DNA of 64,000 bases from Thermosynechococcus sp. GTDB lineage: Bacteria > Cyanobacteriota > Cyanobacteriia > Thermosynechococcales > Thermosynechococcaceae. Below the pieces are notes generated by a model. That model had not been told where the DNA came from, made no database searches, and saw nothing but the letters and a program-made list of their open reading frames with translations. This document shows, piece by piece, positions 5,431 to 28,315 of this stretch. Made by a program: the position numbers and the translations under genes. The stretch's first letter is position 1, and each line of letters opens with the position of its first letter. The stretch spans positions 1 to 64,000 of the forward strand of contig NZ_AP024678.1 in NCBI RefSeq assembly GCF_025999095.1. Reading direction: 5' to 3'.

Positions 5431-6506
5431 ATGACTCAAGAACCGGATGCCCTGACAACGGACCTGCTGCAACGCCTGCGCCGCAAAGAGGGAACTTGGC
5501 AGGATTGGGGGGCAGGATGCCGGCAACTGCAAAAACAGGGGCTCTCTCCCCAAGCCATTTTTGAGGCCACGGGCATTGAACCCATCCACCAAAATCAACT
5601 CATCATTGCCCTGCAAGTGAATCAGAGCCTAGGGGAAGCACCCGAATCGGTGCGTGCCTATTTTCAAACGCGGGGCAGCGATCTGCTCTATGAACTACGG
5701 GTCTTATCGGCGGGCGATCGCCTGGCCGCAGCGACGTTGATTGTCGAGAAACAACTGGATGTCACTGCAGTTCATGAGGTGTGTCGTGCCCTCAAAGCAG
5801 GTCGGCTATCAAAAGGATGACAGTGCAGGCTTTGGTGAGAGTGTGGGCGATCGCATTGCTCGCTACTATTGGCAACTGGCACGGCAGCAGCGAGATTTGG
5901 CCCAGCGATCGCGCCTCATTGCCCAAGGGCTGCGCTTTGTCGGATCTGCTAGCGGCCGGCAGGCCCTAGAAAAATTACTCACGGACTTCACCGTTGTCCC
6001 CGCGGTCAATCAACCCCGCCTCCCCCTTTACCGCTTGGATACGGCTGAGGAGGTCCCCTACTTGGTTCCTGTGGCCGGTACCGCCCCCCTGACCGCTACT
6101 GCCTTTCAGCAGGTTCCCCGCCTGAGCTGCACCGAGGTATTTCGCGTGGTTGCCGTTCCCCAAGGAATGAGTCTTGTGGCTCTCCCCGCTTGGCAAGTGC
6201 TGCTCAATGCCGTTGATCCAGTGGCGATCCTTTGGCCAGCGGCAGACCTTCCTGCAGAATTACCGCCCAGCCCAGAGGGGTTGCCCATTCCCCAGGTGCT
6301 CCTGATTGTGGATCGGGGTTTGGCCGAGTGGAACCGCGATCGCTATCTGTACTGATTGCTCCTAGGCCCTTCTGACGCCAGTTCAACTGGCTTGGTTTCC
6401 TGAACCGCCTACGGCTCCGGTTCTTGGCCAACTTCTACTGCTTCTGCGCCCCCCCCAAGTGTTGGATGAGAGCCTCAACAGGGAACTCTGGTTTTTTGAG
6501 GAATAA
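5431..6506 (+). pseudogene. raf1: Rubisco accumulation factor 1 (raf1), interrupted by about three frameshifts
   Basis: Raf1 is a dimeric chaperone that helps Rubisco large subunits assemble before the small subunit binds. Here the reading frame is split in three. Frame 1 runs from ATG 5431, behind an AGGAGGTGA site, to LKAGRLSK and stops at 5820. The protein resumes in frame 2 from DDSAGFGES (about 5816) to EWNRDRYLY and stops at 6355. The C-terminus, containing LTPVQLAWFPEPP, VLGQLLLLLRPPQVLDE and a final WFFEE, is in frame 3 from about 6366 to the TAA at 6504-6506. One surplus base near the AAAAGG at 5811-5816 and two missing bases near 6352 and in the CCC at 6367-6369 would restore roughly 355 residues, the normal Raf1 length. 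It may be sequence error, true decay or recoding. The gene ends seven bases from the convergent kinase-like gene. Confidence 0.8.
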
Positions 6507-25453: not shown

Positions 25454-25478
25454 AGCAGCAGTGATCTTGCTGCTTTTT
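25454..25478 (+). terminator. Intrinsic terminator after the 65-residue gene
   Basis: AGCAGCA (25454-25460) and TGCTGCT (25468-25474) form a perfect seven-pair stem with a seven-base loop, followed by a run of T. It sits 45 bases after the small gene's stop and about 110 bases before the next gene's start. Confidence 0.75.
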
Positions 25479-25590
25479 GCGTTTGTTGGGGGAGTCGCTT
25501 CTTTCACCCCTTTGAGGAACACTTGCAACAGAGTACGCTAGGGGCGATATTGCTATTTGTAACATCTTGCCAGCATTCTCAGGAGGTTTT

Positions 25591-26172
25591 ATGGCGCGGA
25601 CAGAGTCCACAATGCTTGCCCTTGGTACTGTTGCTCCCGATTTTCAACTGCCCGATGTGGTGAGCGGGCAAACGATTTCCCTCAGCACCTTTGCCGACAA
25701 GAACGCCCTACTGGTGATGTTTATTTGTCGCCACTGTCCCTATGTGAAGCATGTCCAAGCGGAACTGGCGAAGCTGGGGCGCGACTACAAAGAGACAGGC
25801 TTAGGAATTGTGGCCATTAGTGCCAATGACGCTGCCAACTATCCCGAGGATGCCCCAGAGTCCCTGAAGGCGATGGCCACGGAGCTGGGGTTTACATTTC
25901 CCCTGTGCTACGACGAGAGCCAAGAAACAGCCAAGGCCTACACCGCAGCCTGTACACCGGATTTCTTCCTCTTTGATAGCGATCGCAAGCTTGTCTATCG
26001 CGGACAACTTGATGACAGTCGCCCCCAGAATGGTCTACCGGTGACTGGAAAAGACTTGCGTGCAGCCATTGATGCCGTGTTAGCCGGTCAAACCCCCAGC
26101 GAGGATCAAAAACCCAGTCTCGGCTGTAATATCAAGTGGAAACCGGGGAATGAACCGGCCTACTACCGCTAA
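25591..26172 (+). CDS. Thioredoxin-fold (AhpC/TSA, redoxin-like) family protein
   Basis: This cytoplasmic thioredoxin-like protein has the N-terminal APDFQLPDVVSG peroxiredoxin-type block and an active-site CRHC motif in FICRHCPYVKHV. The cis-proline region TPDFFLFDSDRKLVYRG follows. The CxxC arrangement and length (193 residues) fit the cyanobacterial thioredoxin-family proteins rather than a classic 2-Cys peroxiredoxin. ATG 25591 follows AGGAGG by four bases; the frame is open from a TTG at 25567. It stands alone between two terminator-like regions. Confidence 0.88.
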   Translation: MARTESTMLALGTVAPDFQLPDVVSGQTISLSTFADKNALLVMFICRHCPYVKHVQAELAKLGRDYKETGLGIVAISANDAANYPEDAPESLKAMATELGFTFPLCYDESQETAKAYTAACTPDFFLFDSDRKLVYRGQLDDSRPQNGLPVTGKDLRAAIDAVLAGQTPSEDQKPSLGCNIKWKPGNEPAYYR

Positions 26173-26286: not shown

Positions 26287-28315
26287 GTGAATAACCAACT
26301 TTTTTTGCCAGTGCGCATGCAGTCAATGGGGGCTACCCTGAAAACGGTAGGAGTGGCAATAGTAATGGGGGCGATCGCCCTCGGCCCTTTGCGTCCCAGC
26401 CGTGGCCAAGCAGCCCCCACGCCTCCTGACAACCCACCAGCTGAGACCCCGGCATCCCCAACATTACCCTCGGCAGAGCCTGGGCCTGAAAGCCCTCCAG
26501 CGGCACCCCCCCTCCCCCCACCTGTGAGTCAGCCCGCCACTGATGAACCCCAAGTGTTGATTGCTGAAGTGGTGGTTGAAGGAGCCACTCCTGAACTGGA
26601 GCAATTGGTCTATCAAGTCATTAGCACTCGACCGGGCAGTACCACCACCCGCACCCAACTGCAACAGGATACCAACGCCATCTTTGCTACGGGCTTTTTT
26701 GCTGATGTCAATGCCGTCCCCAGCGATACCCCCCTCGGTGTGCGGATTACGTTTATTGTGCGCCCTTATCCGGTACTGCGAGTTGTTCAAGTAGCGGGCA
26801 ACCAAGTCCTCACCCAAGAGAAAGTTCAGGAAATCTTTGCGCCGCAAATTGGCCGCAGCCTCAATCTCAGGGAGCTACAGGCTGGAATTGAAAAAATTAA
26901 CAGCTTCTATAGGGATAACGGCTATATTTTGGGTCAAGTCGTTGGTACCCCCCAAATCGATCCCGATGGTGTTGTGACGTTGCAGGTGGCTGAGGGGGTG
27001 GTTGAACAGGTCACCTATCGCTTTCTGAATAAAGAAGGGGAGCCTACGAAACAGCGGACCCGCGACTTTGTAATTAGCCGCGAAATGGACACTCGACCCG
27101 GAGTAGTCCTTAACCAAAAGACAGTGCAGGCAGATTTGCGACGCCTCTTTGAACTGGGACTCTTTGAGGATGTGCAAGTTGCCCTTGAACCCGGCCAGGA
27201 TCTCCGCAAGGTGAACTTGATTCTCAATATCAAAGAGCGCAATACGGGCAGTGTCTCTGCGGGGGCAGGCTATAGCTCGGCCGCAGGTCTATTTGGAACC
27301 GTAGCATTCCAGCAAAACAACCTCTTTGGCCGCAACTGGAAATTTAGTGCGGAAGCCCAAGGGGGGACTGAAGGGGAATTTCTCTTTGACGTTAGCTTCA
27401 CCGATCCGTGGATTAAAGGGGATCCCTACCGCACCTCCTACACCGTCAGTGCCTTCAACCGCCTGACGGTTCCCTATACCTTCAGTAATGGCCCAATTGA
27501 TGTTCGTTTGGCCAATGGGGATTTTCCGCGGATTAACCGCTTGGGCACGGCGGTCTTCTTTACCCGTCCCTTTACCCAGGATCGCGATCAGGTGCGTACC
27601 GCTTGGACCGGCTCCCTTGGCTTGCAATATCAACGCGTCACCTCCCTAGACGGCGGCTTTACCCGCTTTAATACGGATGCCTTAGGGAACTGTTTAACCT
27701 TTCCAGACAACGGCGTCTGTCGCGGCTTCAATGACCTGTTTACGGTGCAGGCGGCAATTTTGCGGGACTTGCGCAATGATCCCCTGCGTCCCACCAGTGG
27801 CCAAGTGATCCGCCTAGGCGTGGATCAGTCGCTTCCCATTGGTGCAGGGAGCATCTTGATGAATCGGGTGCGGGGTAGCTATAGCTTCTATATCCCAGTG
27901 AAGTTTCTGCGCATTGAGGGGCCGCAAACCTTTGCCTTCAATATTCAAGCAGGCAATATTTTTGGGGATTTGCCCCCCTATGAGTCCTTTACGCTTGGGG
28001 GGTGCTAACTCGGTGCGCGGTTGGGAAGAGGGGGCGATCGGTTCTGGGCGTGCCTTTGTGCAGGGGACGGTGGAGTATCGGTTCCCAATTTTTAATATTG
28101 TGGGTGGGGCGCTGTTTGTTGATGGCGCCAGTTTACTCGGTACCCAAAGCAGCGTACCCGGTCAGCCGGGGATTGTGCGCGGCAAGCCAGGAGAAGGTTT
28201 AGGCTATGGCGCAGGGTTGCGGGTGAATACGCCTTTGGGGAATATCCGCATTGACTTCGGCTGGAACAATGAAGGGGGCAGCGCCTTTAGTTTTGGTATT
28301 GGTGAACGCTTCTAG
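26287..28315 (+). pseudogene. bamA: Omp85/BamA outer-membrane assembly protein, one apparent frameshift
   Basis: This outer-membrane beta-barrel inserts other barrel proteins and is homologous to chloroplast Toc75. The layout is a signal sequence, a proline-rich linker (about residues 40-90, typical of cyanobacteria), POTRA domains (about 95-340) and a 16-strand barrel. The frame from GTG 26287 stops at 28008 just after ESFTLGG. The next frame continues with ANSVRGWEEG, which contains the conserved VRGW lid-loop motif, and ends at the correct terminal Phe (GIGERF) at 28315. The break coincides with six G at 27997-28002; five G would restore about 675 residues. The gene is normally essential, so sequence error is likely. 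lpxC follows. Confidence 0.88.

What the first reader, a model, noticed from the sequence alone, without database searches (positions are those of the whole stretch)
5431..6506. raf1 spread over three reading frames
All parts of Raf1 are present and well conserved, but in three frames, with the C-terminal block (AWFPEPP to LWFFEE) never open from the main frame. Three small indels would repair it, at AAAAGG 5811-5816, near 6352 and at CCC 6367-6369. Preserved protein sequence on both sides argues for very recent loss, recoding or base-call errors, not old decay.
Basis: partly seen in the sequence, partly recalled or inferred. Interest (0 to 1): 0.55.

Follow-up and report, generated by a model that had tools for sequence, protein, structure and literature searches.

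The report
Likely sequencing errors in raf1
A helper gene for the carbon-fixing enzyme Rubisco looks broken in this hot-spring cyanobacterium, but the same kind of small extra-base faults also hits genes that cells should not be able to do without, so the break is most likely an error in the assembled sequence.

Summary
The only raf1 of this 2,497,893-bp Thermosynechococcus genome lies in three frames, while the 10 other species genomes of the genus each have one intact frame. Against the nearest relative the window differs in length by four small insertions, +5 nt in all, at about 5802, 6351-6352, 6370 and 6378. The first is not at AAAAGG 5811-5816, and there are four, not three.

The likeliest cause is residual consensus error. 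In 287 genes compared with two relatives, this assembly alone has 17 distinct frame-breaking insertions. None is beside a homopolymer of 6 or more. 13 of 17 lie within 600 nt of another, some across gene borders. They also hit the main Omp85 gene in this same window (27993) and fmt (118180), each open in all 10 relatives. In-frame interior nonsense changes specific to this assembly number 0-1. N/S on this branch of raf1 is not raised.

Genuine recent loss is not excluded. Raf1 mutants of two model strains are alive (abstracts) and RbcX is intact here. Only reads or a re-sequenced amplicon can settle it. Only 424 kb of the genome was compared.

The parts
5431..5820 (+). raf1, N-terminal part, frame of the start codon; 129 aa then a stop at 5818-5820
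   Evidence: Pfam Raf1_HTH and first 46 of 106 positions of Raf1_N
5802..5802 (+). site of a one-base insertion relative to the relatives (placed at 5799-5802 depending on the aligner)
   Evidence: extra base absent in 10 of 10 relatives
5795..6355 (+). raf1, middle part, second frame: rest of Raf1_N and most of the C-terminal (beta) domain, ending at a stop at 6353-6355
   Evidence: Pfam; phmmer to Anabaena Raf1 6kkm at E 1.6e-36 (query 5756-6355)
6351..6352 (+). two-base insertion relative to the relatives
   Evidence: absent in 10 of 10 relatives
6370..6378 (+). two one-base insertions relative to the nearest relatives, at about 6370 and about 6378
6381..6506 (+). raf1, last 41 residues and stop, third frame
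27993..27993 (+). one-base insertion of the same kind in the main Omp85 gene (26287-28315), used here as an internal control

Best explanation
The organism most likely has an ordinary intact raf1. The deposited sequence carries residual one- and two-base insertion errors in poorly resolved stretches of the consensus, and four of them fall in raf1 (three within 28 bases). Shown: the insertions are specific to this assembly, the same class of insertion recurs and clusters elsewhere in it, and it strikes genes that every relative keeps open. Inferred: that these are errors and not mutations, and that long, insertion-prone reads with thin local coverage caused them (the sequencing method is not known to me).
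For: (a) 10 of 10 other Thermosynechococcus species genomes have an intact raf1 at this locus. (b) Three-way comparison anchored on G010 ORFs: of 349 ORFs, 287 (304,523 nt) could be compared in all three genomes; frame-breaking indels specific to the window's genome: 18 insertions and 6 deletions in 16 genes, which are 17 and 5 distinct places; the nearest relative G003 has 3 and 12. Anchored on G003 ORFs (281 of 335): 20 insertions and 6 deletions for the window's genome, against 1 and 2 for G010. (c) 0 of the 17 insertions lie beside a run of 6 or more equal bases, so ordinary slippage is not the cause. (d) 13 of 17 have a neighbour within 600 nt; without raf1, 9 of 13; in both cases 0 of 20,000 random placements reached that. 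One cluster has 5 in 1,746 nt (140034-141779) and runs through CtaA, an slr1353-family gene and CsaB, which suits local sequence quality better than decay gene by gene. (e) The same class strikes the main Omp85 gene (one open frame of 653-719 aa in 10 of 10 relatives, split 574/137 here), fmt (332-375 aa in 10 of 10 relatives; match cut at profile position 64 here), truB and lnt. That Omp85 and fmt are close to indispensable is recalled, not from a call. (f) In-frame nonsense changes within 10-90% of the ORF: 1 of 287 genes (a 107-aa ORF) or 0 of 281 genes, depending on the anchor; real decay should give some. (g) N/S on this branch of raf1 is 6/9 against 2503/5607 in the 280 other genes, Fisher P 0.42.
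Against: No reads could be examined. The genome is scored 99.99% complete in one contig. Raf1 is a plausible gene to lose: mutants of two model strains live (abstracts). Three of the nonsynonymous changes on this branch (5859, 5943, 6441) hit bases that are the same in all 10 relatives, which would fit relaxed constraint, though the counts are too small to test. A cruder test (ORF split or stop) gave similar totals both ways: 34 of 311 matched G003 ORFs split here, 28 of 317 matched ORFs of this genome split in G003; the excess appears only after polarising with a third genome and separating insertions from deletions. G003 itself has 3 clustered insertions, all in one 107-aa ORF. 424 kb of 2,498 kb was compared.
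Confidence: 0.84

Rival explanations
1. Genuine, very recent loss of raf1 in this species. The gene would give at most a 129-aa fragment with the HTH domain and part of the helical domain, without the C-terminal domain, and Rubisco assembly would run on GroEL and RbcX.
For: The three-frame layout is real in the deposited sequence. RbcX is present and open in 11 of 11 genomes of the genus, this one included. Synechocystis raf1 mutants grow like wild type (abstract) and S. elongatus 7942 without Raf1 lives with reduced growth and faulty carboxysomes (abstract). Three substitutions at bases invariant in 10 relatives. Four insertions in one gene exceed a uniform rate (Poisson P about 1e-6).
Against: Four insertions and no deletion within one gene, while N/S is unraised; the same insertion class and clustering in genes that should be indispensable; clustering also without raf1, so the Poisson excess is not peculiar to raf1; almost no interior nonsense changes specific to this assembly.
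Confidence: 0.14
2. Programmed frameshifting or other recoding joins the three frames into one Raf1.
For: Protein sequence is kept on both sides of each shift.
Against: It would take several frame changes in one species while 10 of 10 relatives read one frame. The insertions do not lie beside homopolymers of 6 or more.
Confidence: 0.01

Closest known systems
Gene-fragmenting errors in long-read assemblies of small genomes (subject of Kastor, PMC12007338; only the start of the abstract seen in a search listing)
   Same: Frameshifts that break genes in one assembly and are recognised by comparison with intact relatives.
   Different: The platform and coverage of this assembly are not known to me, and no reads were examined.
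Rubisco accumulation factor 1 (Raf1), e.g. Anabaena All5250 (PDB 6kkm, 6kkn, 7xsd, 6lrr) and the intact raf1 of the 10 congeners
   Same: All three Pfam domains of Raf1 can be recognised in the pieces (with the last 41 residues).
   Different: No single open frame; only the first 129 aa follow from the start codon.
   Same: Also frame-breaking indels specific to one assembly: 12 deletions in 287 genes.
   Different: 10 of those 12 lie in runs of 6 or more and they are deletions; here they are insertions outside such runs.

Membership tests
Raf1 (Rubisco accumulation factor 1) | Raf1_HTH, Raf1_N and RuBisCo_chap_C domains | tested here: met
   All three found across the first two pieces, the C-terminal domain to position 105 of 138; a G010 relative at the same locus has all three in one frame; the last 41 residues align in the third frame.
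Raf1 (Rubisco accumulation factor 1) | One open frame for the whole protein | tested here: not met
   Three frames in the deposited sequence; met in 10 of 10 relatives.
Residual consensus error | Indels specific to one assembly, absent from relatives | tested here: met
   at the last two raf1 sites 1 of 9 relatives has a base in the column.
Residual consensus error | Same indel class elsewhere in the assembly, without regard to gene function | tested here: met
   17 distinct insertions in 287 genes, among them Omp85, fmt, truB and lnt.
Residual consensus error | Independent reads do not support the indels | not testable with these tools
   No reads available.
Genuine pseudogene | Raised nonsynonymous rate on the branch | tested here: inconclusive
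   6 N / 9 S against 2503 / 5607 elsewhere, Fisher P 0.42: not raised, but the counts are small, and a very recent loss would leave no trace; three changes hit bases invariant in 10 relatives.
Programmed frameshift | Conserved shift site in relatives | tested here: not met
   10 of 10 relatives have a single frame.

The most novel reading that the evidence does not exclude
This species really has just lost Raf1, alone among the 11 sampled species of its genus, and assembles Rubisco with RbcX as the remaining dedicated assembly chaperone tested here: a natural raf1 mutant at high temperature.
Probability: 0.12. Interest if true: 0.4.

Novelty: not a real feature. Interest (0 to 1): 0.07.

Why it matters
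If taken at face value, this sequence would enter databases as a Thermosynechococcus without Raf1, and with a broken main Omp85 gene and fmt. The comparison shows that gene losses read from this assembly should be checked against reads first. If the loss were real, the strain would be a natural test of whether Raf1 is needed for carboxysomes in a thermophile.

Tried and rejected
Rejected: a second, intact raf1 elsewhere (one whole-gene match; one PF18087 match). Rejected: slippage at AAAAGG, which is identical in the nearest relative. Rejected: a natural short form in the genus (10 of 10 relatives full length). Rejected: old decay. Considered without a direct test: a mutator strain; the absence of insertions beside homopolymers of 6 or more (0 of 17) speaks against the mismatch-repair type, but mutS and mutL were not examined.

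Led nowhere: the first split-ORF count, because different ORF starts and end effects swelled it on both sides; 29 of its 34 cases were then looked at one by one (five left out). The congener neighbourhoods fetched (9 loci) were not used. The scan of genome contigs (48 loci) served only to name the genus, through matching contig lengths; its other loci were not analysed. Literature: four searches did not identify the strain; passages of PMC11071339 and PMC9120777 (no mention of Raf1 in its main text) were seen and gave nothing on raf1. No structure prediction was run.

In the protein alignment the fourth row (6379-6504) was in the wrong frame by mistake; the C-terminal piece is taken instead.

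Dropped before counting: ORFs without a match of at least 93% length and 85% identity in both other genomes (62 of 349; 54 of 335), indels within 45 nt of either ORF end, and indels where the other comparison genome was not open (unfiltered 25 and 18, anchored on G010, for the window's genome and G003; unfiltered 28 and 4, anchored on G003, for the window's genome and G010). Of the deletions counted for the window's genome, the 1+5 pair at 2423805 sums to a multiple of three and the 7-nt one lies at the joined contig ends.

Full report
What was claimed and what is there. The window is bases 1-64000 of a single-contig genome of 2,497,893 bases. The genus is Thermosynechococcus: three of its congeners in the search have contigs whose lengths (70179, 35780, 31560) equal those of records titled Thermosynechococcus. 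The piece after the start codon is 129 aa and holds Raf1_HTH and positions 1-46 of 106 of Raf1_N; the middle piece holds the rest of Raf1_N and positions 1-105 of 138 of RuBisCo_chap_C and matches the solved Anabaena Raf1 (6kkm, E 1.6e-36); the last 41 residues stand in the third frame at 6381-6503. There is no second raf1.

Relatives. All 10 other species genomes of the genus have the gene, at 69-97% DNA identity to the window, and in each the longest open frame runs through the whole protein to the C-terminal glutamates. The 5 nt are four insertions in the window: one base at about 5802, two at 6351-6352, one at about 6370 and one at about 6378. At the first two sites no relative has the extra bases; at the last two, 1 of the 9 relatives other than G003 has a base in that column.

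Is it peculiar to raf1? The three are largely collinear. A first count of split ORFs was not telling: 34 of 311 matched G003 ORFs looked split here and 28 of 317 the other way, many through differing ORF starts (29 of the 34 viewed). The three-way comparison separates the branches. With G010 ORFs as anchor, 287 of 349 ORFs (304,523 nt) could be compared: 18 insertions and 6 deletions that break the frame are specific to the window's genome, and 3 and 12 to G003. With G003 ORFs as anchor (281 of 335) the window's genome has 20 and 6, and G010 has 1 and 2. One insertion falls in two overlapping ORFs, so the 18 are 17 distinct places.

What kind of indels. The two genomes have different signatures. 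10 of 12 deletions in G003 lie in runs of 6 or more equal bases; 0 of 17 insertions in the window's genome do. From general knowledge the first looks like homopolymer-limited reads and the second like insertion-prone long reads, but I do not know how either was sequenced. The insertions cluster: 13 of 17 have a neighbour within 600 nt, and 9 of 13 when raf1 is left out; 0 of 20,000 random placements reached either. One cluster of five (140034, 140069, 140367, 141219, 141779) runs through CtaA, an slr1353-family gene and CsaB, with the first place also inside the overlapping heme o synthase ORF.

Genes that should not be broken. In this same window the main Omp85 gene has a one-base insertion at 27993. 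It is one frame of 653-719 aa in 10 of 10 relatives and split into 574 and 137 aa here; a second, weaker Omp85-family match elsewhere in the genome (317261-317710) is open. At 118180 an insertion cuts fmt (TIGR00460 above cut-off for the G010 gene): the frame is 332-375 aa in 10 of 10 relatives, and here the match begins only at profile position 64; two other formyltransferase-family genes are open here as in relatives. truB and lnt are also hit. That Omp85 and fmt are near indispensable is recalled; the point rests as well on their being open in all relatives.

Tests of decay. If genes were truly decaying, in-frame nonsense changes should appear too. Specific to the window's genome and within 10-90% of the ORF there is 1 in 287 genes (a 107-aa ORF that is also interrupted in G003) with G010 as anchor, and 0 in 281 with G003 as anchor; 12 and 10 further-unfiltered cases include ORF ends and shifted frames. 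On this branch raf1 has 6 nonsynonymous and 9 synonymous changes against 2503 and 5607 in 280 other genes (Fisher P 0.42). Against my reading, three of the nonsynonymous changes (5859, 5943, 6441) are at bases that are the same in all 10 relatives, and a loss recent enough would leave N/S untouched.

Could the cell do without Raf1? Yes, by what is known: the abstract of PMC5387032 reports normal growth of a Synechocystis raf1 disruption, and that of PMC7382273 reports live S. elongatus 7942 cells without Raf1 but with reduced growth and abnormal carboxysomes. RbcX is open in 11 of 11 genomes. So biology alone does not exclude a true loss, and I leave it 0.14.

Verdict. The most likely reading is an intact raf1 in the organism and residual insertion errors in the assembly (0.84). 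Shown: assembly-specific, clustered insertions that take no account of gene function. Inferred: that they are errors. Not done: reads, which alone decide.

Noticed in passing
window 26287-28315: Main Omp85 gene split by a one-base insertion at 27993; open in 10 of 10 relatives.
   Followed up: yes
window 25461-26172: Gene of about 239-249 aa with a one-base deletion at 25565 relative to both G003 and G010, just upstream of Omp85.
   Followed up: partly
window 1 (contig ends 2497893/1): A gene spanning the two contig ends lacks 7 nt relative to both G003 and G010 when the ends are joined, as if the circle had not been closed exactly.
   Followed up: partly
G000 140034-141779 (L088): Five frame-breaking one-base insertions in 1,746 nt across CtaA, an slr1353-family gene and CsaB.
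   Followed up: partly
G003 regions L017-L036: The nearest relative has 12 frame-breaking deletions specific to it in 287 genes, 10 of them in runs of 6 or more equal bases: probably errors of another kind.
   Followed up: partly
window 63551 and 63573: Two T runs, each one base longer than in G003, change an ORF there.
   Followed up: no
window 5883-5921: 39 bases of raf1 match another place in the same genome (198486-198524, 85%) and single places in four congeners; not explained.
   Followed up: no
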